From Nocardia sp. CNY236 (lineage in GTDB: Bacteria; Actinomycetota; Actinomycetes; Mycobacteriales; Mycobacteriaceae), in contig NZ_AXVD01000011.1 of the NCBI RefSeq assembly GCF_000482385.1, positions 62,001 through 126,000 on the forward strand: a DNA stretch of 64,000 nt. The letters run 5' to 3'. Shown here in pieces: positions 6,804 through 60,950 of this stretch; position 1 is the first letter of the stretch; each line of letters starts with the position of its first letter. The position numbers and the translations under genes were made by a program. The notes below the pieces were generated by a model. It saw only the letters and a program-made list of their open reading frames with translations. It was not told the DNA's origin and searched no databases.

Positions 6804-8582
6804 GTGAAAGCGGGCGTAAGAAAACGCGCGGCCGGGCGCATCGTGTTGTCGGCCGTGGCAGTGCTGATCCTGATCGGCAGTTGTGCGGCGAATCCGCCGC
6901 CGCCCATCGAAAGTACCGACAGCCCGAAGACCCCGCCCGTCGAACTGGCCGAAACAACTGTCGTGGTCGCCATGGATACCGTTGCCATGTCGTTCAATCC
7001 ACATCTGCGCGCGGATCTGTCGCCGGCCACCTCCGCGATCGCGTCGCTGATCTTGCCGAGTCCGTTCCGGCCCGTGCCGAGTCCGGTGGTGCCGGGAGCG
7101 ACGGAATGGGTGCCGGATTCATCCCTACTGCTGTCGGCCGATGTGATCGGAGAGGAACCGTTCACGATCGTCTACAAGTTGCGTAACGAGGCGTCGTGGT
7201 CGGACGGAGCGCCCATCGCCGCCGAGGACTTCCGCTACTTGTGGCAAGAGATGATCTCCGAACCCGGGGTGGCCGATCCAGCCGGCTATCGGCTGATCAC
7301 GGATGTGAATTCCTCGGCCGGCGGCAAGACGGTCACCGTCACGATGTCGCAGCCCTACCCCGGCTGGCGGGAGTTGTTCACCAATCTGGTGCCCTCCCAT
7401 CTGCTGAAGGACGCGCCCGGGGGATTCTCCCGAGGCATGAACGGCCAGGTCAACGGTATCCGGGTCTCCGGCGGCCCTTTCGGGATCCGATCGGCCGACC
7501 CAGGTCGCGGGGAGATGCTGTTGGAACGCAACGACCGCTACTGGGATACCCCGGCCCTACCGGATCAGATTCTGCTGCGACGAGGTGGCACGACCGCGCA
7601 ACTGGCGGGTTCGCTGCGTGTCGGCGACGTCCAGATGGCGCTGGTTCACGGCGGCGTCGCGACCCAAGCCCAGCTGGGTGCGGTCCCTTCGGTGCGGACC
7701 GCGATCATGCCGCAGTCGCGCGTACTACAGCTGGTGCTCAACGGACGCACAGATGCGCTGAGTGACCCGCGGGTGCGCTCGGGTGTCCTGGCGTTGCTCG
7801 ACCCGGCCCTGTTGGCGACGGTGGGCGCCCAGACCGGAGACTGGGTCGAGCCAGCACGTGCGCAGGTGCTCGCGCCATCCGACCCCGGTTATCTGCCGAC
7901 CGCTCCGCCGCGACTGTCCGAAGACGAGGCGTTCGGCTTGCTGGCCGCCGCGGGCTATGGCCGCGCACCGGAGCCGCCGCCGGCGATATCGCACACGTCG
8001 CCCGCACCGCAACCGCGCAGTATCGGCAGAGACGGCGAAGCGCTCACCGTGCACATCGGCGCGGCCGACCACGACGCTACTGCGCTCGCTGTGGCCAATA
8101 CGGCCGCCGACCAGCTGCGCAGCGCGGGTATCGAGGCAAAGGTGCGCAGCATCGCCGCCGACGAACTCTATGGCGAGGAGTTGCTCGAAGGGACCATCGA
8201 CGCGATCGTCGGCTGGGAGACCGTAGGTTCGGACCCGGCGACGGTGTTGGCCTCGCGCTATGGATGCCCGCCGCCACCCGTCGCCGAGATCCCCGGCGCT
8301 GCGCAAGCGGTCGCCGAAGCGGCGCGCCGGGCGCCGAGCAATGTGTCCGGGGTCTGTGATCCGGCCCTGCAGCCGGCGATCGACGCGGCACTGCACGGCG
8401 TCGACGTCGGTCGGGTGCTCGCCGACGCCGAACCCATGCTGTGGGCCATGGCGACAGTGCTGCCGATCGTGCAGGACAACGTGGTCGCGGTGGCGGGCCC
8501 CCAGGTGGACGGAGCCTCGCTCAGCGGCGCCGTCCACGTCGGTATCTTCGGCGACGCGTCCATGTGGCGCATGGTGTCGTGA
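6804..8582 (+). CDS. lpqW: LpqW-like lipoprotein, family 5 extracellular solute-binding fold
   Basis: A 592-residue exported lipoprotein with the fold of oligopeptide-binding (SBP_bac_5) proteins, including WSDGAPIAAEDFRYLW and GPFGIRSADPGRGEMLLERN segments. The start is GTG 6804, which gives a short basic N-region, a hydrophobic core and a lipobox ending IGSC with Cys 27 as the lipidated residue; upstream ATGs would bury the signal. In mycobacteria LpqW does not import peptides but helps direct PIM intermediates towards lipomannan/lipoarabinomannan, and it interacts genetically with PimE. The position between typA and mshB matches Rv1166. The GTG of mshB overlaps its stop. Confidence 0.88.
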   Translation: MKAGVRKRAAGRIVLSAVAVLILIGSCAANPPPPIESTDSPKTPPVELAETTVVVAMDTVAMSFNPHLRADLSPATSAIASLILPSPFRPVPSPVVPGATEWVPDSSLLLSADVIGEEPFTIVYKLRNEASWSDGAPIAAEDFRYLWQEMISEPGVADPAGYRLITDVNSSAGGKTVTVTMSQPYPGWRELFTNLVPSHLLKDAPGGFSRGMNGQVNGIRVSGGPFGIRSADPGRGEMLLERNDRYWDTPALPDQILLRRGGTTAQLAGSLRVGDVQMALVHGGVATQAQLGAVPSVRTAIMPQSRVLQLVLNGRTDALSDPRVRSGVLALLDPALLATVGAQTGDWVEPARAQVLAPSDPGYLPTAPPRLSEDEAFGLLAAAGYGRAPEPPPAISHTSPAPQPRSIGRDGEALTVHIGAADHDATALAVANTAADQLRSAGIEAKVRSIAADELYGEELLEGTIDAIVGWETVGSDPATVLASRYGCPPPPVAEIPGAAQAVAEAARRAPSNVSGVCDPALQPAIDAALHGVDVGRVLADAEPMLWAMATVLPIVQDNVVAVAGPQVDGASLSGAVHVGIFGDASMWRMVS

Positions 8583-9475
8583 GCTCGGCGGCCGCGTCCA
8601 TGGCAGGTGGCCTGCTGATGGTCCATGCGCACCCGGACGACGAATCCATCACCACCGGGGGGACGATCGCGCACTATCGCCGGCGTGGGATACCGGTAAC
8701 GGTGATCACCTGCACCCTCGGCGAGGAGGGGGAAGTGATCGGTGAGCAGTGGGCGCAGTTGGTCGCCCACCGTGCCGACCAACTCGGCGGCTATCGGATC
8801 CTCGAGCTGACCCGTGCACTCGAGCAGCTGGGCGCGGGTCCGCCGCGGTTTCTCGGCGGTGCGGGTCGCTGGCGCGACTCCGGCATGGCGGGCACGGCGT
8901 CCGCGCGGAATCCGATGGCGTTCGTGCATTCCGGAGACGATGCAGTGCTGGCGCTGACAGAGGTGATCCTGCAGGTTCGACCGCGTGTGGTGGTCGGCTA
9001 CGATCCGGACGGCGGCTATGGCCACCCCGATCACATTCGGGCACACGAGATCAGTACGGCTGCAGTGCATGTCGCAGCCGGCAGAGGCTGGGACGTCCCG
9101 AAGTTCTACTGGACGGTGACCGACGCCGACCTGCTCGGCCAACACACCACGGCACTGGCCCGACGTACGGTCGAGGGTCTTCCCGGCGCGCTGCCGCCCG
9201 GCTGGCGGCTGCCCGGCGACGGGGAGCTCGCATGCGTGCCCAGCTCCGCGGTGACCACGATCATCGATGTCTCCGACGAGTTGCCCGCCAAGCGAGCCGC
9301 GTTGCGGGCGCATGCCACACAAGTCGTCGTCGCGTCGTCGGGACGGGAGTTCGCGCTGTCGAACACTATCGCTCAGCCGATACTGCCGCACGAGCACTTC
9401 GTTCTCGTGCGGGGTCGGCGTGGCCCGGTGGGATCGGACGGGCGCGAACACGACCTGTTCGGGGGTTTGGACTGA
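8579..9475 (+). CDS. mshB: GlcNAc-Ins deacetylase MshB (mycothiol biosynthesis)
   Basis: A 298-residue LmbE/PIG-L-family zinc deacetylase. It removes the acetyl group from GlcNAc-inositol, the second committed step of mycothiol synthesis. The zinc ligands are His 18 and Asp 21 in AHPDDE and His 152 in GYGHPDH; with a five-residue offset these match the His13/Asp16/His147 set known for the M. tuberculosis enzyme. The start at GTG 8579 overlaps the lpqW stop as GTGA, suggesting translational coupling. An ATG at 8600 is an alternative. Mycothiol is the low-molecular-weight thiol of Actinobacteria, which supports the taxonomic call. Confidence 0.93.
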   Translation: MSSAAASMAGGLLMVHAHPDDESITTGGTIAHYRRRGIPVTVITCTLGEEGEVIGEQWAQLVAHRADQLGGYRILELTRALEQLGAGPPRFLGGAGRWRDSGMAGTASARNPMAFVHSGDDAVLALTEVILQVRPRVVVGYDPDGGYGHPDHIRAHEISTAAVHVAAGRGWDVPKFYWTVTDADLLGQHTTALARRTVEGLPGALPPGWRLPGDGELACVPSSAVTTIIDVSDELPAKRAALRAHATQVVVASSGREFALSNTIAQPILPHEHFVLVRGRRGPVGSDGREHDLFGGLD

Positions 9476-12581: not shown

Positions 12582-15263
12582 ATGATCGAGGACGTGACCG
12601 ACCTACCGCACCCGAGCATCCCGTCCGCACCGCCGAGCCCGTCGGCCATGCGTCGGGCGTTGCGCAGGGCCCGCGACGGCGTCTCGTTGAACGTCGACGA
12701 GGCGACGGTGCTCCTACACGCCACCGGTGAGGACCTCGCGGACCTGTGTCGCAGCGCCGCGCGGGTGCGCGATGCCGGTCTGGTTTCCGGCCAGCGTGCG
12801 AAGACACTCACCTATTCCCGCAATGTCTTCGTTCCGCTGACGCGGCTGTGCCGGGACCGATGCCACTACTGCACCTTCGTCACCGTGCCCGGCAAGCTGC
12901 GCGCCGAGGGCAGAGGGCTGTTCCTCGAACCCGACGAGGTAGTCGATATCGCCCGGCGTGGCGCGGCGTTGGGGTGCAAGGAGGCGCTGTTCACCCTCGG
13001 TGACCGCCCGGAGGATCGGTGGCCGGAGGCTGCCCAGTGGCTGGACGAGCGCGGGTACGACTCCACGCTGGACTACCTGCGCGCCGTGTCGATCATGGTC
13101 TTGGAACAGACAGGCCTGTTGCCGCACCTGAATCCAGGGGTGATGTCGTGGGCGGAGATCGCCCGGCTCAAACCGGTCGCGCAGTCGCTGGGCATGATGC
13201 TGGAAACCACCGCGACCCGCTTGTACACCGAGAAGGGCAACTGCCATTACGGCAGCCCGGACAAGGATCCCGCGGTGCGGTTGCGCGCCATCGCCGATGC
13301 GGGCCGGCTGTCGGTGCCCTACACCACCGGAATTCTGGTCGGTATCGGTGAGACCATGGCCGAGCGGGCCGAATCGATCCTGCAGATCCGAAAGCAGCAC
13401 AAGGCTTTCGGACATATCCAGGAAGTAATCGTGCAGAACTTCCGCGCCAAGGACGACACCGCGATGCGGGAGACGCCGGATGCGGGAATCGACGAGTTTC
13501 TTGCCACCATCGCCGTTACACGTATCCTGCTCGGCCCCGGCGTTGCGGTCCAGGCGCCGCCGAACCTGGTGTCACACGCCGAGTGCCGTGCGCTGATCGA
13601 TGCCGGTATCGACGACTGGGGCGGGGTATCGCCGGTCACGCCCGACCACGTCAATCCCGAGCGGCCGTGGCCGAATCTGGACACGTTGCGCGAGATCACC
13701 GAGTCGGCTGGGTATCAGCTGGTCGAACGCACCTCTGCACACCCGAAGTACGTGCTGGCGGGTAACCCATGGATGGATCCGCGCATCGGTCGACACGTCG
13801 CGGCGCTCACCGATCCGGTCACCGGGTTGGCGAAGCCGGATGTAACCCCGGTGGGCCTGCCCTGGCAGGAGCCGGACGAATCATGGCAGTCGACCGGACG
13901 CGTCGATCTCCACACCGCCATCGACATCGATGGCCGCAGCACCGAGCATCGCAGTGACGCCGGACTCGCCCCGGGCCGGTCGAGTGGTGACCTCGATGAC
14001 GACTCGACCGACCGCGCAATCGACGCCGCCGGCGCCGACCGGCTGCCGTCGACCGATGTGGTGGGCGCCTTCGGTGACTGGGACACCATCCGCGAGCAAG
14101 CGCGGGATCTCGCCGCGGCGACGCCCCGACGCTTGGATGCCGACGTGCTCGCCGCATTGCGCGCCGCCGAACGCGATCCGGCCGGGCTCGGTGATACGGA
14201 ATATCTGGCGTTGGCCACCGCGGACGGCGCAGAATTGGACGCGGTCGCCGGGCTGGCGGACGAATTGCGTCGCGAGGCCGTCGGAGACGAGGTCACCTAC
14301 GTGGTGAACCGGAACATCAATTTCACCAATATTTGCTACACGGGGTGCCGGTTCTGCGCCTTCGCGCAACGCAAAGGCGACGCGGATGCATTCACGCTGA
14401 GTACCGACGAGGTCGCCGATCGTGCATGGGAAGCGCATGTCGAGGGCGCCACGGAGGTGTGCATGCAGGGGGGTATCGACCCCGACCTGCCGGTTACCGG
14501 GTACGCCGACTTGGTTCGGGCGGTCAAACGGCGGGTGCCCTCCATGCACGTGCACGCGTTCAGTCCGATGGAGATCGTGAACGGCGCCTCCCGGGGTGGG
14601 CTGAGTATTCGGGACTGGTTGGTCGCATTGAAGGAGGCCGGCTTGGACACCATTCCAGGCACGGCAGCCGAGATTCTGGACGACGAGGTGCGGTGGGTGC
14701 TCACCAAGGGCAAGCTGCCCACCTCTGCGTGGATCGAGGTGATCACCACCGCGCACCAGCTGGGCATCCGGTCCAGCTCGACCATGATGTACGGCCACGT
14801 GGACAATCCGGAGCATTGGATCGGGCACCTGCGGGTGTTGCGTGGAATCCAGGACGAGACCGGGGGCTTCACCGAGTTCGTCCTGCTGCCGTTCGTGCAC
14901 CAGAGTGCCCCGTTGTACCTTGCCGGCGCTGCGCGGCCGGGGCCGACCAAACGAGACAACCGCGCTGCCCATGCCGTGGCCCGGATCATGCTGCACGGCC
15001 GGATCTCGAACATTCAGACCAGCTGGGTCAAACTCGGGACCGTCGGAACCCGAGTGATGTTGTCCAGCGGCGCCAACGATCTCGGGGGCACGCTGATGGA
15101 AGAGACCATCTCCCGGATGGCGGGGTCCCAGCACGGCTCGGCGAAAACCGTCGCCGACCTGGTCGAGATCGCCACGGGGATCGGTCGACCGGCTCGTGAG
15201 CGGACGACGACCTACGGTGTGCCCGAGCGCAAGGCGTCGCTGCTGCCATTGACGGTCGGGTAG
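12582..15263 (+). CDS. fbiC: FO synthase FbiC (fused CofG/CofH), F420 biosynthesis
   Basis: An 893-residue two-domain radical SAM enzyme that makes the deazaflavin FO from a flavin-pathway pyrimidine and tyrosine. The CofG half has its cluster motif at Cys 90, 94 and 97 (CRDRCHYC). The CofH half has Cys 585, 589 and 592 (CYTGCRFC). A poorly conserved linker near residues 430-500 joins the halves. The fused form is typical of Actinobacteria. F420 made through this route could serve the LLM-type enzyme at 23.1 kb. A GC-rich stem-loop follows the stop codon, before the ferredoxin gene. Confidence 0.96.
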
Positions 15264-20531: not shown

Positions 20532-21383
20532 TCAGACCAGCGGCCGGCCGAGCCGGCGGCGAAGACGCATGTCCAATAGGTAGGCGTTGTACGGGAACAC
20601 TCGAATCGGTTGCGGCAGTGCGGCCGACGCGGCGCCGAGGGTGCGCAGGACGTGATCGAGCACCTGGTCCTCACGCTGGCTCCAGGTCAGGCCCATTTCG
20701 CAGCGTAGGTGTGCCGGCAGCAGCCCCGTGACGACGAAGCGGTGCATGCGTCCGAAGGCCAGTTGGACCGGGCGGGGCAGCATGCGCAGGTCGACGAGGT
20801 CGTGGAGGTAGGCGCGGACGGTCGGATCGATGCTGGTGTTCGCGAGTTGCCTCGCCCAGTATTCGTCGAAGTCGCGCCGGTTGGCAGGCCATAGTGTGTG
20901 CGGCATTTGCAGGGTGGTGCCCATCCGTGCGCCGAGATGGAAGAAGGCATCGGCGGTCGCGTCGTCCATGGGACCGTGCATGCGTTCGTACAGGTCCTTC
21001 GCGCCCCAGTACAGGCAGGCCGCAACCCATAGCTGCAGGGTCGGGTCGAAGGCGTTGTATCGCACGGGACTCGACGCACCCGAACGAACCGGTCGATGTG
21101 CGACGTCGACTGCCTGGCGATAGGCGGCACGTTCGGCGTCGGTGCCGAGGAGGGTCACCGAAAGATAGGTCAGGGTGGTGCGCAACCGCTTGATCGGATG
21201 AAGCATGACTTTGCCGCTGTCGACGGTGCTTTCCACCACGCCGCGCCCAACGGGCGGCGCGCTCAGTTGCATGATGACATTCGCGGTACCGCCGAGGAAG
21301 CCGGCGATCCCGTCGATGTGGCGCTCCAGCTCGACGGAACCAGCACGGTCGATTCGAGGTGGAGTATGCGGTGGCCAGGGCAT
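20532..21383 (-). CDS. DUF2236 (MpaB/latex-clearing-protein-like) oxygenase family protein
   Basis: A 283-residue protein of the MpaB/rubber-oxygenase-like DUF2236 family. It contains the central LWVAACLYWGAKDLYERMHGPM region, ADAFFHLGARMG, and the DFDEYWARQLANTSIDPTV segment typical of the family. Characterised relatives bind heme b and oxidise hydrophobic substrates such as polyisoprene; the substrate here is unknown. ATG 21383 is preferred because GGTGAGG precedes it; GTG 21395 is possible. It is divergent from fadD36 with a 27-bp palindrome between them, so both may answer the same lipid-related signal. Confidence 0.85.
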   Translation of the reverse strand: MPWPPHTPPRIDRAGSVELERHIDGIAGFLGGTANVIMQLSAPPVGRGVVESTVDSGKVMLHPIKRLRTTLTYLSVTLLGTDAERAAYRQAVDVAHRPVRSGASSPVRYNAFDPTLQLWVAACLYWGAKDLYERMHGPMDDATADAFFHLGARMGTTLQMPHTLWPANRRDFDEYWARQLANTSIDPTVRAYLHDLVDLRMLPRPVQLAFGRMHRFVVTGLLPAHLRCEMGLTWSQREDQVLDHVLRTLGAASAALPQPIRVFPYNAYLLDMRLRRRLGRPLV

Positions 21384-21399
21384 CGTCGACCTCACCAGA

Positions 21400-21541: not shown

Positions 21542-22960
21542 ATGTCCTTCGGTTCGGTCCCGCTACTCGGTTGTTCGAGCCCGCACGCTCTCGTGCACGG
21601 GCAGGACATCCCCAATGCGGTCACCATCGAGGGGACCACGCTCTCGCGCGGCGACCTGCTGGGTGCGGCCACGTCGGTGGCCGAGCGCATGGGACCCGCC
21701 GAGCGGGTGGCAGTGTTTGCCGAGCCCACGGTGGATACGGTGCTCGGGGTGGTCGGTTGCCTGATCGCCGGCGTCCCCGTCGTACCGGTGCCGCCGGACT
21801 CCGGCGCTGCGGAACGGGCGCACATTCTGACCGATTCGGGCGCGCAGATCTGGCTGGGGAAGGCTCCGGACGGCGCCGACCTACCGGTGGTGCCGGTCCG
21901 ACGGCACGCCCGGTCGTGGCACACCTATCCAGAACCCGACCCCGGCGCGCCCGCCGTCGTGTTGTACACCTCCGGAACCACCGGGCCGCCCAAGGGGGTC
22001 GTGCTCGGGCGAGCGGCCATCGCGGCCGGCCTGGATGCCTTGATCGAGGCGTGGGATTGGACCGCGAGTGACGTTCTGGTGCACGGGCTTCCGCTGTTTC
22101 ACCTGCATGGGCTCGTGATCGGGATGCTCGGCGCCCTGCGTGTCGGCAGCCCGGTGATCCACACCGGCAGACCCACGCCCCAAGCCTATGCCGAGGCCCC
22201 GGGCTCACTGTACTTCGGCGTGCCGACCGTCTGGTCGCGGATCGTGGACGACCCCGATGCTGCAGCGCGATTGGCCGGCGCCCGACTGCTGGTCTCCGGT
22301 AGCGCACCACTGCCGACGCCGGTGTTCGAGCGGTTGCGCACGCTCACCGGACACGCGCCGATCGAGCGATACGGCATGAGCGAAACCATGATCACACTGT
22401 CCACTCGGGCCGATGGGGAACGCAGACCCGGCTGGGTGGGCCTGCCGGTGCATGGTGTGCAGACCCGACTCCGAGACGAGTCCGGTGCTCCGGTCCCGCA
22501 CGATGGGGAAAGCATCGGTGGCCTACAGGTACGTGGCCCGATGGTCTTCGACGGCTACCTGAACCGCCCGGAGACGACTGCGGCGAATTGGACCGACGAC
22601 GGGTGGTTCCGGACGGGAGACGTCGCCGTCATCGACCCTGAGGGCTTCCATCGCATCGTCGGTCGAGAATCGGTCGACTTGATCAAGTCCGGTGGCTATC
22701 GTGTCGGCGCGGGCGAAGTGGAGACTGCGCTGCTCGGGCACCCGGCGGTCGCCGAGGTGGCGGTGGTCGGGCTACCGGACGCCGATCTCGGTCAACGCAT
22801 CACTGCGTTCGTTGTGTTGCGGCACGAGGCCAGTGCGCGTGAATTGATCGACCATGTGGCCGAACAGCTTTCGGTGCACAAACGCCCCCGCGAGATTCGG
22901 GTGGTGGATACCCTGCCGCGCAACGCCATGGGCAAGGTGCGCAAAGCGTTGCTCGGCTGA
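21542..22960 (+). CDS. fadD36: Acyl-CoA synthetase, FadD36-like
   Basis: A 472-residue ANL-superfamily acyl-CoA ligase. The P-loop is VVLYTSGTTGPPKGV near residues 139-153, the A5 motif is RYGMSET, the A7 region is WFRTGDVA, the A8 hinge GRESVDLIKSGGYRV, and the A10 lysine lies in NAMGKVRKALLG. It would activate a carboxylic acid as its CoA thioester through an acyl-AMP. The short length and position after pruA/putB match FadD36 (Rv1193); malonyl- or medium-chain-type specificity cannot be excluded. It is divergent from the DUF2236 gene across a palindrome. Confidence 0.88.
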   Translation: MSFGSVPLLGCSSPHALVHGQDIPNAVTIEGTTLSRGDLLGAATSVAERMGPAERVAVFAEPTVDTVLGVVGCLIAGVPVVPVPPDSGAAERAHILTDSGAQIWLGKAPDGADLPVVPVRRHARSWHTYPEPDPGAPAVVLYTSGTTGPPKGVVLGRAAIAAGLDALIEAWDWTASDVLVHGLPLFHLHGLVIGMLGALRVGSPVIHTGRPTPQAYAEAPGSLYFGVPTVWSRIVDDPDAAARLAGARLLVSGSAPLPTPVFERLRTLTGHAPIERYGMSETMITLSTRADGERRPGWVGLPVHGVQTRLRDESGAPVPHDGESIGGLQVRGPMVFDGYLNRPETTAANWTDDGWFRTGDVAVIDPEGFHRIVGRESVDLIKSGGYRVGAGEVETALLGHPAVAEVAVVGLPDADLGQRITAFVVLRHEASARELIDHVAEQLSVHKRPREIRVVDTLPRNAMGKVRKALLG

Positions 22961-23106
22961 CCATCGCTGATCGCATACTGGTGTCGGGACCGTTGCACCC
23001 GGTGCGCGATCTCGGTTCGCGCGCTTTCGTGGCAGAGCGAACACAGGCCCTGATGCGGACCCTTCAGAGTTTTCGTTCTTCGGTGATGGAAGGATGGTTC
23101 GATGAC

Positions 23107-24231
23107 ATGTCAGCGACCATTGATCACGGGTCGTCGAGTGAATCCGGGAATTCTCGTTTCGGCATCATTCTATCGTCCGCAGTTCGAGGACTGGCCGTCG
23201 GGAACTATCCGGATATGGTGCGAACAGCGCGAGAGGCCGAAACACTGGGCTTCGAGTCCATATGGCTGTGTGACCATTTTCTCACGCTGAGCCCCGAAGA
23301 CTATGTGCAGGAAGTCGGTATCGGCGGCGATTCGTCCGGGCGACAACAGGCGAGTCACCGGAACGGACACTCCATCCCGCAATTGGAATGCTGGACCGCG
23401 CTGGCTGCACTGTCACGAGACACAGAACGTATTCGGCTGGGAACGAATGTCCTGTGCAACTCCTACCGCTATCCGTCGGTGCTCGCGAAGATGGCCGCCA
23501 CGCTCGACGTCATCTCCGCCGGGCGGGTGGAACTCGGCCTGGGAGCGGGCTGGTTTCGGCAAGAATTCGACGCCTATGGAATTCCCTTCCCGCCGACCGG
23601 TGACCGAGTGTCTGCGCTTGCCGAGTCGTTGCAGCTCATACGGCACATCTGGGTCGACGAATCCCCGGCCTTCCACGGTGAGTACTACGCGATCGACGGC
23701 GCAGTGTGCGATCCAACGCCGGTGCAACGTCCACATCCGCCGCTGTGGGTCGGCGGCGAAGGCGACCGGGTTCATCGCATTGCCGCTCGGTATGCCGACG
23801 GCATCAATGTGCGTTGGTGGTCCCCGACACGGTGCGCAGACCGCCGGGATTTTCTGGATCGCGCGTGCGAGAAAGCGGGTCGTGAGCCCGCGGCACTGCG
23901 CTTGGCACTGACCGCCCTACTCGCCCCGGTCGCCCACCCGGAATCGCAGCAACGGATTCGGACACGATTCCGATCCATTCCGGCCGACGGGTTGATCATC
24001 GGCTCACCGGAGAAGTGTGCAGCGCGAATCAGAGAGTATGAGAACGCGGGAATCCGTGACTTTCTTTTCTTTGTCCCCGATGTTGCCGATACCGAGTATC
24101 TGACAGTGGCAGGGGAGGAGGTGATCCGATACTTCGGCGATTCATCGTCGAGGAACGACGCGGTCGGCGCCCGTGGCGACGAACCGAACAGCCAAGCAGG
24201 GAGAGAGCAACGAGATGACCTACCCCAATAA
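23107..24231 (+). CDS. LLM-class, probably F420-dependent, oxidoreductase
   Basis: A 374-residue luciferase-like TIM-barrel protein. It has FGIILSSAVRGL at the N-terminus, LGFESIWLCDHFLTL, ERIRLGTNVLCNSYRYPSVLAKMAATLD, and GRVELGLGAGW, then HPPLWVGGEG and LIIGSPEKCAARIREYENAGI. This layout is typical of the actinobacterial F420-using group rather than FMN monooxygenases, though the cofactor is inferred. The start is set at ATG 23107; ATG 23086 and an upstream frame from 22981 are alternatives. Its last 17 bases overlap the start of the transglutaminase-like gene, so the two are likely translated together. The substrate is unknown. Confidence 0.85.
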   Translation: MSATIDHGSSSESGNSRFGIILSSAVRGLAVGNYPDMVRTAREAETLGFESIWLCDHFLTLSPEDYVQEVGIGGDSSGRQQASHRNGHSIPQLECWTALAALSRDTERIRLGTNVLCNSYRYPSVLAKMAATLDVISAGRVELGLGAGWFRQEFDAYGIPFPPTGDRVSALAESLQLIRHIWVDESPAFHGEYYAIDGAVCDPTPVQRPHPPLWVGGEGDRVHRIAARYADGINVRWWSPTRCADRRDFLDRACEKAGREPAALRLALTALLAPVAHPESQQRIRTRFRSIPADGLIIGSPEKCAARIREYENAGIRDFLFFVPDVADTEYLTVAGEEVIRYFGDSSSRNDAVGARGDEPNSQAGREQRDDLPQ

Positions 24232-24976
24232 TTCGGCCGCCAATAATTCGGCCGCCAACAACTCTGCGGTAGCAGCTGCCGACGACGAATACCTTCGCCC
24301 CACGCCCTATGCGAACTCCGACCATCCCATTGTGGTGGCGAAAACCGAGGAACTCACGAGCGCATCGTCGGATGTCCTCGTTCACCTCGGGAATATATAT
24401 CGGTATGTTCGTGACATTCCCTACGATATCCTTGCGTCGTTCAGATATCTTGCGGAGGGCAAGAGTGCCGCCAGCGACGTGATCGAACACGACGTCGCTT
24501 TTTGCATGGGTAAGGCGAATACCTTCGTCGCTCTGTGTCGGGCAGCGAAGATCCCCGCGCGTGTCGCCTTCCAGTCGCTCGATGCGCCCGAGATGGAATT
24601 CCTCGCGCCCGAGGTGCGCCGCATGTGTGGCGGTCGGGCAGGTCGACCGCTGCCCTGGCATTCGCTCGGCGAAGCGTTCCTCCATGGCCGATGGATCAAA
24701 CTGGATGCCACCATCGACGCCCCGACCGCGCAACGGCTGGGAAAGCCGTACACCGTGGAGTTCGACGGTCGGACCGACATACCCACCGTGGAGGGAGCGG
24801 TGCTTCGAGACAACGGCAGCTACGCGGACTACCCACCGCAGGTGGCTGCCTGGTACATGCGGCTGGCTCGAGAAGTCCTCGGCGCTCTGGATTCCGACAT
24901 CGACGAGCAGCGTGTCGCTGCCGACGACCGGCTGTGGGCCGGACCGGATCCAGATCTGGTCCGGCTCGGCCGATAG
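24215..24976 (+). CDS. Transglutaminase-like cysteine-protease-fold protein
   Basis: A 253-residue protein with a transglutaminase-core domain. The probable catalytic triad is Cys 97 (AFCMGKANTFVALCRAA), His 149 (PWHSLGEAFLHGRW) and Asp 164 (KLDATID), in the family order and spacing. No signal peptide or membrane helix is seen, so it should be cytosolic. The first 18 residues contain three NNSA(A) repeats encoded by a 15-bp tandem repeat. The start at 24215 lies inside the end of the LLM gene. Bacterial relatives act as peptidases or amide-forming/cleaving enzymes; no specific reaction can be assigned here. Confidence 0.8.
   Translation: MTYPNNSAANNSAANNSAVAAADDEYLRPTPYANSDHPIVVAKTEELTSASSDVLVHLGNIYRYVRDIPYDILASFRYLAEGKSAASDVIEHDVAFCMGKANTFVALCRAAKIPARVAFQSLDAPEMEFLAPEVRRMCGGRAGRPLPWHSLGEAFLHGRWIKLDATIDAPTAQRLGKPYTVEFDGRTDIPTVEGAVLRDNGSYADYPPQVAAWYMRLAREVLGALDSDIDEQRVAADDRLWAGPDPDLVRLGR
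24227..24271 (+). repeat. 15-bp tandem repeat at the LLM/transglutaminase overlap
   Basis: Two identical units of AATAATTCGGCCGCC (24227-24241 and 24242-24256) are followed by a degenerate third. They encode NNSAA in the transglutaminase frame. In the LLM frame each perfect unit contains an in-frame TAA, the first being the stop codon actually used. Confidence 0.85.
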
Positions 24977-25015
24977 CCTGCTCCCAGGTTCCGATGGACC
25001 GGGATCCCGCACGAC

Positions 25016-25032
25016 GAGCCTCGACGAGGCTC
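25016..25032. terminator. Candidate bidirectional terminator
   Basis: GAGCCTC (25016-25022), loop GAC, GAGGCTC (25026-25032): a 7-bp perfect stem extendable by GAC/GTC across a one-base bulge. It lies between the convergent transglutaminase-like gene and dapD and overlaps the dapD stop. Confidence 0.5.
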
Positions 25033-25978
25033 AGTCGTTGGCGTGGAGATCGGTGTTGAGGGCGATCCCGACGCCTTTGCGGGAAACCACCTCGACCACG
25101 CCCGTAGTGGAATTGCGACGAAACAACAGATTGTCGCGGCCGGCCAGTTCGGCCGCCTTCATCACAGCGCCGTCCGGGGCGGTGACCTTGGTCCCCGCGG
25201 TCAGGTACAACCCTGCCTCGACGACACAGTCGTTGCCCAGCGGTATACCCAGGCCGGAGTTCGCGCCGAGCAGCGACCGCTCGCCGATGGAGATCACCGT
25301 GGTGCCGCCACCGGACAGGGTGCCCATCGTGGAGGCGCCGCCGCCGACATCCGAGCCGTCGCCGACAACGACGCCGGCGGAGATGCGACCTTCGATCATG
25401 GACGCCCCGAGGGTACCGGCGTTGAAATTCACGAAGCCTTCGTGCATGACTGTGGTGCCCGCAGCCAGATGTGCGCCGAGCCGAACCCGATCCGCATCGC
25501 CGATGCGGACGCCAGTGGGTAGCACATAGTCGATCATGCGCGGGAATTTGTCGACGCTGTACACCGTGACCGGCCCGCGGGCGCGGAGTCGGGCGCGGGT
25601 GGCCTCGAATCCCTCGACAGCGGCCGGACCGTGATTGGTCCACACCACATTGGTCAGCAGGCCGAACTGGCCCTCCAGGCTCACACTGTGTGGGGTGACC
25701 AGGCGGTGGGAGAGCAAGTGCAAGCGCAGGTAGACATCGTGCGCGTCGATCGGCGCGGCAGCGAGGTCGGCGATCGTGGTGCGCACTGCGACCACGTCGA
25801 CTCCGCGGGCCTCGTCGAAGCCGAGCAGCGCCGCGTACTCCGCGGGTACGTCGTCCAGTCGCTTGGTGCCGGTCTCGGCGAACTCGCCCAGCTGCGGGTC
25901 CGGGTACCACGTGTCCAACACAGTCCCATCCGCGGTCACACTGGCGATTCCGACTGCTGCTGCTCCCTGGATGCTCAC
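25031..25978 (-). CDS. dapD: Tetrahydrodipicolinate N-succinyltransferase DapD
   Basis: A 315-residue acyltransferase of the actinobacterial DapD type. An N-terminal domain is followed by left-handed beta-helix hexapeptide repeats ([26 protein letters not shown], read in overlapping six-residue units) and a C-terminal lid. It transfers succinyl from succinyl-CoA to tetrahydrodipicolinate in the DAP/lysine pathway. GTG 25978 gives [14 protein letters not shown], matching the start of known relatives; the open frame continues upstream to 26077 without similarity. It is divergent from dapE, the order seen as Rv1201c-Rv1202. Confidence 0.93.
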
Positions 25979-44617: not shown

Positions 44618-46087
44618 CTATTGGGGCGGTGCGGGAAGCGGGATGACGATCCCGAAGGGCAACGTGATTGCGGGCTGGGGAGTGGGTTCCGGTCGAGGTC
44701 CGTCCGCGGGCGGGGCCGGTTCGGTGGGTGCGGCCGGGGGCGCGGGTTCGGGCTGCGCGGCGGGTGGTTCGGCAGGCTGCGCGGCGGGTGGTTCGGCAGG
44801 CTGCGCAGCGGGTGGTTCGGCAGGCTGCGCAGCGGGTGGTTGCGGTTGTGCGGGATCGGTGGGTGGCGTGGCACCGGGTCCGCTTTCCGGTGGTAGGCAA
44901 TCAGAAGCCGAAGCGTCCCCGGCCTGCGACAGGTCCGTCCCGGGCGGTGGGCCGAAACGCTTCGCCGACGACAATGGCTCGTCGTCGGCCGCCGGGCGGC
45001 CGGTTCGCGGCATCGGCGCCGGAACCGGTTGGACCGCACATGGTTCCGGTGGATCCGCGGGCAATGGAGCGGGCGCGGGACAGAAGATGCCACACGGAAT
45101 CGGCGGCAGACCGGGGATGTCGATCATCACCTGCTCCGACTCGGGAGGGGGTGCCGGCGTAGGTTGCTCGGGGCCGATGCGCGGTGGCGAACCTGGATCG
45201 GACGGATCGACCACGGTGTGCTCCGGAGCCACGGGCGGCGACACCGGCAATGCTCCCGGCGGAACCAGATCCGGGGAAATCTGCACCGGCGCGGGTGCCC
45301 CGCCGGTGCGATATGCGGCCGACCAACTCAACACATTCGCCGCATAGGCCATCGAGTTGTTGTAGCGCAACACCGCCCGCAACTCCTGAGCCGGATCGCG
45401 CAGATTCAACCCGCCCGAACACAGATACTTCCCGGCGGCCAACGCCGCATCGAACACATTGTGTGGATCGGCAACGCCGTCCGCATTGCCGTCGGTGCCG
45501 TACAACGCCCATGTCCCCGGTAGGAACTGCATCGGCCCCACCGCCCGCACATACCCGCCGTCGGCGGCGCGAATGACTTCGTTGCCCGGCAGAGTGCCAT
45601 CCAATGCCGGTCCGTAGATCGGTCGCACCGTCGTGCCCGCCGCGTCGGTGCGTCCGCCTCGCGCGTGCGCGGACTCCACCCACCCGATTCCAGCCAGCAG
45701 ATTCCACGACAGTCCGCAGCCCGGTGTCGAGGATGCCATGGCCAGCTCCGCGTTGCGATACGCGGCCAACACGACCTCTGGAATGCCCAACCCGCCCCGG
45801 TGCGCCGGGAGCGAAATCTCTCGCAAGGGAACAACGCCCGAGAACGGAGCCACCGTACTCGGCTGCACCGCGCGCAATGTCCGCGGCCGTTGTGTCGGCG
45901 CGGGCAGTACCCCCACCGTCCGGGACAGCCCGGCATCGGTTGCGTCCGACGCCACCGCCACCATTTCCGGCTCTCCGTGTGAGGTCCGGGGCGCCGACCC
46001 GCTCGCTACGACACCAGCAACAACCAATGCCGATACCGTCACCGGAACAGATACGCGCATTCGGCCACACCCAATCGTCGACGTCAC
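44618..46087 (-). CDS. Exported lytic transglycosylase with long proline-rich tail
   Basis: A 489-residue paralogue of the gene downstream. A signal peptide (core about residues 12-32) leads to an SLT_2 domain near residues 95-260, with LLAGIGWVESAHARGG (catalytic Glu), AVGPMQFLPGTWALYGTDGN and LRYNNSMAYAANV. Residues 270-489 are Pro/Ala-rich. They include PPIPCGIFCPAP, with two close Cys, and then an 8-residue repeat PPAAQPAE near 425-455. The tail probably spans or binds the cell wall. The repeat may vary in number between strains. The start is 46087, with ATG 46060 (MRVSVP) as an alternative. Confidence 0.88.
   Translation of the reverse strand: MTSTIGCGRMRVSVPVTVSALVVAGVVASGSAPRTSHGEPEMVAVASDATDAGLSRTVGVLPAPTQRPRTLRAVQPSTVAPFSGVVPLREISLPAHRGGLGIPEVVLAAYRNAELAMASSTPGCGLSWNLLAGIGWVESAHARGGRTDAAGTTVRPIYGPALDGTLPGNEVIRAADGGYVRAVGPMQFLPGTWALYGTDGNADGVADPHNVFDAALAAGKYLCSGGLNLRDPAQELRAVLRYNNSMAYAANVLSWSAAYRTGGAPAPVQISPDLVPPGALPVSPPVAPEHTVVDPSDPGSPPRIGPEQPTPAPPPESEQVMIDIPGLPPIPCGIFCPAPAPLPADPPEPCAVQPVPAPMPRTGRPAADDEPLSSAKRFGPPPGTDLSQAGDASASDCLPPESGPGATPPTDPAQPQPPAAQPAEPPAAQPAEPPAAQPAEPPAAQPEPAPPAAPTEPAPPADGPRPEPTPQPAITLPFGIVIPLPAPPQ
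44752..44841 (-). repeat. 24-bp tandem repeat coding for PPAAQPAE
   Basis: Three and a partial fourth copies of a 24-bp unit at 44752, 44776, 44800 and 44824, nearly identical (one G/A difference). They encode the 8-residue repeat in the transglycosylase tail. Confidence 0.9.
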
Positions 46088-60870: not shown

Positions 60871-60950
60871 GACCCAGCTCCCGCCGCGAAGACCCAGCTC
60901 CCGCCGCGAAGACCCAGCACCCGCCGCGAAGACCCAGCACCCGCCCGCGC
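60871..60950. repeat. 20-bp tandem repeat, four copies
   Basis: Units start at 60871, 60891, 60911 and 60931. The first two are identical (GACCCAGCTCCCGCCGCGAA); the third has one change (T to A), and the last is degenerate at its 3' end. The array lies between the convergent exporter and fadD15-like genes, 3 bases from the exporter stop. Confidence 0.95.

What the first reader, a model, noticed from the sequence alone, without database searches (positions are those of the whole stretch)
23107..24976. LLM flavoenzyme overlapping a transglutaminase-like gene
A probable F420-dependent oxidoreductase and a cysteine-protease-fold protein with an intact Cys-His-Asp triad are coupled by a 17-base overlap. 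The pair is not a known pathway to me. It could modify or cleave an amide-containing metabolite or act on a peptide. A 15-bp tandem repeat encoding NNSAA lies right at the overlap, and its units contain stop codons in the LLM frame.
Basis: partly seen in the sequence, partly recalled or inferred. Interest (0 to 1): 0.55.

Follow-up and report, generated by a model that had tools for sequence, protein, structure and literature searches.

The report
Borrowed F420-type oxidoreductase and amidase pair
Two adjoining genes, an enzyme that probably uses the rare cofactor F420 and a probable amide-cutting enzyme, were gained together by this bacterium, with their nearest known relatives in other actinobacteria; the same pair belongs to a known but unexplained gene cluster of the tuberculosis bacillus.

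Summary
In detail: an LLM oxidoreductase (23107-24231) overlaps by 17 bp a transglutaminase-fold protein (24215-24976) with an intact Cys97-His149-Asp164 triad; a 15-bp tandem duplication lies at the junction. The pair is conserved but patchy. No close copy was found in 97 other genomes of the genus; it fills a ~2.1-kb, lower-GC insertion between fadD36 and dapD, neighbours in 10 of 10 relatives: recent lateral gain. Outside the window, 13 of 13 close TG homologues with an open catalytic region have the LLM directly upstream, a GntR regulator before it and an ABM gene nearby. The regulator matches NCBIfam's 'Rv0792c family' and ABM matches solved Rv0793, so this is the enzyme pair of the M. 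tuberculosis Rv0790c-Rv0793 cluster, in print as an operon; I found no reaction for it. New here: in three Sciscionella-type loci an aldehyde dehydrogenase and an NADPH:F420 reductase (npdG) follow. This suggests an F420-linked catabolic module: redox step, amide hydrolysis, aldehyde oxidation. Substrate unknown. The window has only the two enzymes, and its genome no npdG or close regulator. Overlap and repeat are local details. The LLM also occurs without TG (12 of 24 Mycobacterium-like genomes).

The parts
23107..24231 (+). LLM-class (luciferase-like) oxidoreductase, Rv0791c-type; NCBIfam TIGR03560 and TIGR03619 'F420-dependent LLM class oxidoreductase'
   Evidence: PF00296 E 2.3e-53; TIGR03560 233.1 bits vs cut-off 231.4, TIGR03619 183.3 vs 166.9; both scored on the longer ORF from 22981; 58-61% identity to four homologues
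24215..24976 (+). Transglutaminase-fold cysteine hydrolase/transferase, Rv0790c-type, 253 aa
   Evidence: PF01841 E 3.5e-12, the only Pfam family matched; AlphaFold model of residues 21-253 pLDDT 92.4; best solved match 3isr, Z 13.7; 57-67% identity to four LLM-paired homologues
24215..24231 (+). 17-bp overlap of the two reading frames
   Evidence: not found in the five homologous junctions looked at
24225..24258 (+). 15-bp tandem duplication, 2.3 copies, encoding NNSAA in the TG frame; supplies the LLM stop codon (TAA 24229) and a second in-frame TAA (24244)
   Evidence: absent in the homologues aligned
24503..24505 (+). codon of Cys97 (inferred catalytic)
   Evidence: Cys in 31 of 31 aligned sequences
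24659..24661 (+). codon of His149 (inferred catalytic)
   Evidence: His in 31 of 31 aligned sequences
24704..24706 (+). codon of Asp164 (inferred catalytic)
   Evidence: Asp in 13 of 13 LLM-paired sequences of alignment A3 (window included) and in 3 of 18 distant ones (L008, L009, L012); Thr in 14 and Ser in 1 of the other 15
22961..25030 (.). ~2.1-kb segment without counterpart in the relatives compared: inserted between fadD36 (ends 22960) and dapD (its end at 25031)
   Evidence: homology to 10 Nocardia-like relatives stops at 22938-22963 and resumes at 25020-25037; LLM and TG GC 61-62%, GC3 66-71%, against GC3 78-85% in nine flanking genes

Best explanation
A laterally acquired two-enzyme fragment of the Rv0790c-Rv0793-type cluster. 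The LLM enzyme, most likely with F420 (F420H2), transfers hydride to or from a small amide- or ring-containing substrate; the transglutaminase-fold enzyme then uses its Cys-His-Asp triad to hydrolyse (or transfer) the amide bond made labile or exposed by that step. In the fuller cluster (Sciscionella) an aldehyde dehydrogenase oxidises the aldehyde product, npdG recharges F420 from NADPH, an MFS carrier may import the substrate and a GntR/UTRA regulator senses it. In the window the F420 would be recharged by another enzyme of the cell and the pair stands without its regulator. Shown: both families, the triad residues, predicted fold, conservation, cluster make-up, lateral gain, an F420 biosynthesis gene in the genome. 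Inferred: cofactor, order of steps, amide chemistry. Unknown: substrate.
For: LLM directly upstream of TG in 13 of 13 loci outside the window whose TG has an open catalytic region (L026-L030, L054-L057, L059-L062; in L062 the LLM itself is in two frames, in L030 the TG ends early at a stop). GntR upstream in the same 13 and ABM in the same 13 (in L059 about 2 kb away). GntR = NCBIfam NF052441 Rv0792c family, 454-490 bits vs cut-off 400 in 4 of 4 scanned, three TG-bearing and one TG-less locus; ABM best solved match = Rv0793, 1y0h, E 9.3e-30 and 2.5e-44 in 2 of 2 scanned. In the three Sciscionella-type loci ALDH and an npdG homologue follow (L026 npdG 173.6 bits vs TIGR01915 cut-off 149.8); none of the seven L026 cluster genes put to NCBIfam was a flavin reductase. 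A Mycobacterium-like locus (L062) keeps part of the same ALDH, 69% identical. The window genome has fbiC (TIGR03551 533 bits). TG fold: 3isr Z 13.7, animal transglutaminases up to Z 10. LLM and TG trees both join the window to the Sciscionella-type rows (100/99).
Against: No substrate or activity is known. The F420 assignment rests on family naming: the LLM only just passes TIGR03560 (233.1 vs 231.4; L026 231.5) and also scores FMN families far below their cut-offs. The window genome has no npdG, no close Rv0792c-type regulator (best 32% identity) and only a 34% ABM. The LLM occurs without TG in 12 of 24 Mycobacterium-like genomes, so TG is not needed for every use of the LLM. ALDH plus npdG are known only in three closely related loci, the MFS in two of these. 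A flavoprotein of the pyridine-nucleotide disulphide oxidoreductase type lies near one Mycobacterium-like locus (L060 4456-5889) and was not followed. The window rows have long end branches (0.73 LLM, 0.36 TG), so their exact place is unsure. A published study places Rv0790c in the cell-wall fraction and gives it a host-directed role (PMC9683476), which a cytoplasmic catabolic enzyme does not predict.
Confidence: 0.45

Rival explanations
1. The LLM is an FMNH2/O2-dependent monooxygenase that opens an N-heterocycle, and TG hydrolyses the resulting amide, as RutA/RutB do for pyrimidines.
For: The LLM class includes RutA, SsuD and MsuD, all matched in the PDB search; LLM, amidase, aldehyde-handling enzyme and transporter is also the make-up of the Rut pathway (recalled, from no call).
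Against: The redox partner gene in the Sciscionella cluster is an npdG-type F420 reductase, and none of the seven L026 cluster genes put to NCBIfam was a flavin reductase (other genes of the loci were mostly not scanned). Best curated families are F420-named; the RutA model scores far below its cut-off (64.8 vs 498.3).
Confidence: 0.2
2. TG is a peptide- or protein-modifying enzyme (protease or transglutaminase), possibly acting at the cell surface or on a host, and the LLM is only co-transcribed with it.
For: Transglutaminase fold; published cell-wall location and host role for Rv0790c (PMC9683476, passages and Discussion).
Against: The Pfam scan found no domain besides Transglut_core, and no export signal was seen by eye (no signal-peptide program was run). 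The family occurs in Sciscionella next to ALDH and npdG genes, which fits small-molecule metabolism.
Confidence: 0.15
3. Biosynthetic use: TG forms an amide, as geldanamycin amide synthase GdmF and arylamine N-acetyltransferases of the same fold do, and LLM tailors the product.
For: GdmF (8oom, Z 8.2) and NATs (Z up to 8.8) are among the structural matches.
Against: No synthase or assembly-line gene was noticed in the L026 and L028 open-frame lists (read by eye); 3isr and animal transglutaminases score higher, and Z near 8 is common (note). ALDH, transporter and npdG fit catabolism better.
Confidence: 0.1
4. In the window the pair is a non-functional passenger after lateral transfer.
For: No regulator, ABM, ALDH or npdG beside it; long end branch of the window LLM (0.73); composition unlike its neighbours.
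Against: Both frames are intact, the triad is kept, and identity to the homologues is 57-67% (TG) and 58-61% (LLM).
Confidence: 0.1

Closest known systems
M. tuberculosis Rv0790c-Rv0793 (moyR/Rv0792c) cluster
   Same: LLM plus TG-like pair; in the homologous loci an Rv0792c-family GntR and an Rv0793-like ABM gene stand by it; published as expressed like an operon, with F420-type and transglutaminase-like annotation by database match (PMC8698889, passages)
   Different: The window has only the two enzyme genes, at another site (fadD36-dapD), with a 17-bp overlap, an NNSAA tail and no regulator; the M. tuberculosis sequences of Rv0790c and Rv0791c themselves were not compared here
Sciscionella-type LLM-TG-ALDH-npdG operon (L026, L027, and unnamed L028)
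   Same: Nearest relatives of both window proteins in the trees; TG 67-68%, LLM 61-63% identical; same gene order LLM-TG
   Different: Has GntR, ABM, ALDH and npdG (and MFS in two of three); LLM and TG are separated by a few tens of bases instead of overlapping
npd picrate/2,4-dinitrophenol pathway (F420H2-dependent LLM reductases)
   Same: Works alike in logic: LLM-type hydride transfer with F420H2, in Rhodococcus, Nocardia and Nocardioides (PMC8498797, passages)
   Different: No TG-like gene known there (recalled); no evidence that the LLM here acts on nitroaromatics
Rut pyrimidine pathway (RutA LLM, RutB amidohydrolase)
   Same: LLM followed by a cysteine amidohydrolase (recalled)
   Different: RutA uses FMNH2 and O2, and RutB is not transglutaminase-fold (recalled); RutA model cut-off not met

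Membership tests
TIGR03560 / TIGR03619 F420-dependent LLM class oxidoreductase | score above curated cut-off | tested here: met
   233.1 vs 231.4 and 183.3 vs 166.9 bits (on the ORF from 22981); the L026, L029 and L098 LLMs also pass both, L026 by 0.1 bit on TIGR03560
TIGR03560 / TIGR03619 F420-dependent LLM class oxidoreductase | uses F420 | not testable with these tools
   only indirect: fbiC in the genome, npdG in the Sciscionella operon
Transglutaminase-like superfamily PF01841 | domain score above gathering cut-off | tested here: met
   47 bits vs 23
Transglutaminase-like superfamily PF01841 | Cys-His-Asp triad in order | tested here: met
   C97, H149, D164; Cys and His in 31 of 31, Asp in 16 of 31 aligned sequences, among them 13 of 13 LLM-paired ones
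Transglutaminase-like superfamily PF01841 | transglutaminase fold | tested here: met
   predicted model pLDDT 92.4; 3isr Z 13.7 over 152 residues, rmsd 3.0
Rv0790c-Rv0793-type cluster | LLM directly followed by TG | tested here: met
Rv0790c-Rv0793-type cluster | Rv0792c-family GntR upstream | tested here: not met
   none between fadD36 and dapD; best in the whole genome 32% identity
Rv0790c-Rv0793-type cluster | Rv0793-like ABM gene nearby | tested here: not met
   best in the genome 34% identity, on another contig
Rv0790c-Rv0793-type cluster | direct sequence identity to M. tuberculosis Rv0790c and Rv0791c | not tested
   no such record was at hand; the link rests on NF052441 and 1y0h neighbours in homologous loci

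The most novel reading that the evidence does not exclude
The cluster is an undescribed F420-linked catabolic pathway (LLM hydride transfer, transglutaminase-fold amidase, aldehyde dehydrogenase, dedicated NADPH:F420 reductase) spread by lateral transfer among actinobacteria, whose reduced versions survive in Nocardia-like bacteria and, as Rv0790c-Rv0793, in M. tuberculosis; the published host-directed role of Rv0790c would then be secondary or wrong.
Probability: 0.35. Interest if true: 0.65.

Novelty: new member of a known kind. Interest (0 to 1): 0.42.

Why it matters
It gives a metabolic context (aldehyde dehydrogenase, F420 reductase, possible importer) to a tuberculosis gene cluster reported to respond to the intracellular environment (PMC8698889, passages), for whose enzymes I found no reported reaction, and it offers relatives in Sciscionella in which that reaction can be looked for. 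It would also be a transglutaminase-fold enzyme partnered with an F420-type oxidoreductase, a pairing for which the searches made here (listings, passages of four papers) showed no described reaction.

Tried and rejected
Phage or plasmid origin of the pair: no phage record matched the TG, and 10 plasmid records matched only at 26.7-32.3% identity. A repeat search around the insertion listed only short repeats that look like chance besides the 15-bp duplication; no mobile gene was noticed beside it in the open-frame list (read by eye).

The NNSAA repeat as a functional element (frame switch, coupling ratio): not favoured, as neither repeat nor overlap is conserved in the junctions looked at.

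A P450- or acyl-CoA-linked role copied from the distant TG family: the ~30% identical TGs lie next to a P450 (L068, L070) or an acyl-CoA synthetase (L065-L067; acyl-CoA dehydrogenase by Pfam in L066), but their counterparts in alignment A3 have Thr where the triad Asp stands, so their context was not carried over. Three other distant members (L008, L009, L012) do keep the Asp; their neighbours were not studied.

Pyridine-type ring cleavage (LLM, amidohydrolase, semialdehyde dehydrogenase; recalled) as a precise match: two paper searches (listings only) gave nothing that ties it to this family.

The first fold of TG from five sequences was poor (pLDDT 55.8) and was not used. One search for npd gene clusters with aldehyde dehydrogenase (listing only) gave nothing I could use.

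Rows dropped: of the 14 TG hits four (G904, G905, G940, G1050) were broken or partial and left out of the 13 loci; G940 was not fetched. G148 (L030) was kept although its TG ends early at an in-frame stop. In the count of 12 TG-less among 24 LLM-bearing genomes, G904 and G1050, with broken or partial TG, count as TG-bearing. In one search broken TGs, identical copies and frames over 360 aa were left out of the list of 36, of which 30 plus the window went into alignment A3. Hits under 45% identity were not printed, under 60 bits, under 50 bits in the first and 35 bits in the second scan. The trees used best single tblastn pieces.

Full report
Observation. The two genes are as described. LLM 23107-24231 and TG 24215-24976 overlap by 17 bases; TG has C97, H149 and D164 in the usual order. 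Pfam gives Bac_luciferase (E 2.3e-53) and Transglut_core (E 3.5e-12). The 15-bp unit at 24225-24258 is present in 2.3 exact copies, the only exact 15-mer tandem duplication in the window, and two copies carry TAA in the LLM frame, the first being the LLM's stop.

Conservation. With the TG protein, 0 of 97 other genomes of the genus had a close relative (11 had weak matches, 27-35% identity); with the LLM, 0 of 97 matched at E<=1e-50. Among 397 genomes of the order, besides the window's own, three close TGs appeared (G462 69%, G457 61%, G148 63%), the ten other matches being 31-36% identical. The class sample of 394 added no further close one. A pattern scan of named genomes, which finds close relatives only, gave Sciscionella marina and S. 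sediminilitoris (67 and 68%). In the Mycobacterium-like genus 14 of 248 genomes matched a TG of that genus at E<=1e-20: ten with an open catalytic region (one of them, G148, ending early at a stop) and four broken or partial, two of these in 3.3-Mb genomes like those of leprosy bacilli (inference from size and decay). In the family of G462, 1 of 250 was close (G462 itself) and three were 31-33%.

Pairing. In the five loci first examined the LLM lies directly upstream, 60-63% identical. Over the 13 loci outside the window whose TG has an open catalytic region (L026-L030, L054-L057, L059-L062) the LLM, and GntR before it, were found in 13 of 13; in L062 the LLM is split over two frames. Against strict pairing: the LLM was found in 24 of 248 Mycobacterium-like genomes at E<=1e-80, 12 of them without a TG hit; in those 12 loci no TG, GntR in four and no ABM were found at 50 bits or more. 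The LLM tree puts nine of these TG-less loci in one clade (95/95) beside TG-bearing ones, so loss of TG there is the simpler reading; it was not tested.

Identity of the cluster. The GntR gene matches NCBIfam NF052441 'Rv0792c family' at 454 (L026), 490 (L029), 472 (L062) and, from a TG-less locus, 489 bits (L098), cut-off 400. The small ABM gene, found in 12 of 14 further loci searched (not in L058 and L063, whose TG is broken) besides L026 from which the query came, has Rv0793 (1y0h) as best solved match for both proteins tried, L026 and L029. Eight of the ten Mycobacterium-like loci lie within a few kb of purQ. This identifies the Rv0790c-Rv0793 cluster, although Rv0790c and Rv0791c themselves were not compared. 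[quoted passage not shown] transcripts of Rv0790c and Rv0791c rise in an Rv0792c mutant (PMC9927256, passages); all three fall about five-fold under para-hydroxybenzaldehyde (PMC10470581, passages); Rv0790c is reported in the cell-wall fraction and as host-directed (PMC9683476, passages and Discussion). Of 19 papers naming Rv0790c or Rv0791c (listing) I saw passages of four; none of those passages gives a reaction.

Wider cluster. In L026, L027 and L028 the pair is followed by an aldehyde dehydrogenase and an npdG-type gene; L026 npdG passes TIGR01915 (173.6 vs 149.8). The L026 ALDH is nearest to succinate-semialdehyde dehydrogenases but below every cut-off listed, and the MFS nearest to aromatic acid/H+ symporters, also below cut-off; the MFS is by the pair in L026 and L028, not L027. 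L062 keeps a 241-residue stretch of the same ALDH, 69% identical, after TG. These genes point to F420-linked catabolism. A pyridine-nucleotide disulphide oxidoreductase lies near L060's GntR and was not followed.

Origin in the window. fadD36 and dapD lie near each other in 10 of 10 relatives fetched (eight within 2 kb, L131 2.8 kb, L130 8.8 kb), with no LLM or TG of at least 45% identity between them (searches agree). Homology stops at 22938-22963 and resumes at 25020-25037. LLM and TG have GC 61-62% and GC3 66-71%, against GC3 78-85% in nine neighbouring genes. Both trees join the window to the Sciscionella-type rows (100/99), though its end branches are long. So the two genes most likely came together, and no GntR, ABM, ALDH or npdG came, or stayed, beside them; the rest of the genome holds no close GntR, ABM or npdG; ALDH was not searched there. 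It does hold fbiC, so F420 is probably made.

Structure. From 31 aligned sequences the TG (residues 21-253) gave a confident model (pLDDT 92.4). Best solved matches: 3isr (Z 13.7, rmsd 3.0, 152 residues) and animal transglutaminases (up to Z 10), then arylamine N-acetyltransferases (up to 8.8) and geldanamycin amide synthase (8.2) (Foldseek order). The fold shows that amide-type thiol chemistry is possible, not which reaction. Cys and His are kept in 31 of 31 sequences, Asp in 16: all 13 LLM-paired and three of 18 distant ones.

Mechanism. I judge most likely an F420-dependent redox step by LLM, hydrolysis of an amide by TG through the Cys thiol, then aldehyde oxidation where ALDH is kept. Families, triad residues, predicted fold, gene order and lateral gain are shown; cofactor, order of steps and amide chemistry are inferred; the substrate is unknown. 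The LLM passes TIGR03560 only narrowly, which keeps the FMN reading open.

Verdict. A real, conserved and functionally unexplained pair; a new member, in a new host and place, of a cluster already on record. The addition of value is the Sciscionella context and the evidence that the pair travels.

Noticed in passing
window ~12693-15218: fbiC-type F420 biosynthesis gene (894-residue open frame; CofH part 14193-15218, TIGR03551 533 bits) lies about 8 kb upstream of the LLM in the same window.
   Followed up: partly
L064 (G905) 7916-8590 and G940:C1:2634760-2635005: Decayed or partial TG remnants in two 3.3-Mb Mycobacterium-like genomes, the first near purQ; no LLM was found in L064 at the thresholds used. 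G940 was not fetched.
   Followed up: partly
L098 5706-6104; also in L100-L103 and L105: In TG-less Mycobacterium-like loci a 132-residue protein resembling the VOC (glyoxalase/dioxygenase) family (my reading; NCBIfam gave no family) stands divergently where ABM stands in TG-bearing loci.
   Followed up: no
L065-L067: Distant TG relatives lie in an operon of like-sized genes in three loci; in L066 Pfam names an ectoine-synthase-like cupin, indigoidine-A-like, MFS, arylmalonate-decarboxylase-like, acyl-CoA dehydrogenase and glycosyltransferase genes, with an acyl-CoA synthetase.
   Followed up: no
L068, L070: Other distant TGs have a cytochrome P450 gene directly upstream, frames touching.
   Followed up: no
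window 44751-44841 and 60871-60945: Two strong tandem arrays (24 bp x 3.8 and 20 bp x 3.8, 98% matches).
   Followed up: no
window 20532-21395 and L129-L138: MpaB/Lcp-type oxygenase gene beside fadD36; seven of ten relatives show two matches here where the window has one.
   Followed up: no
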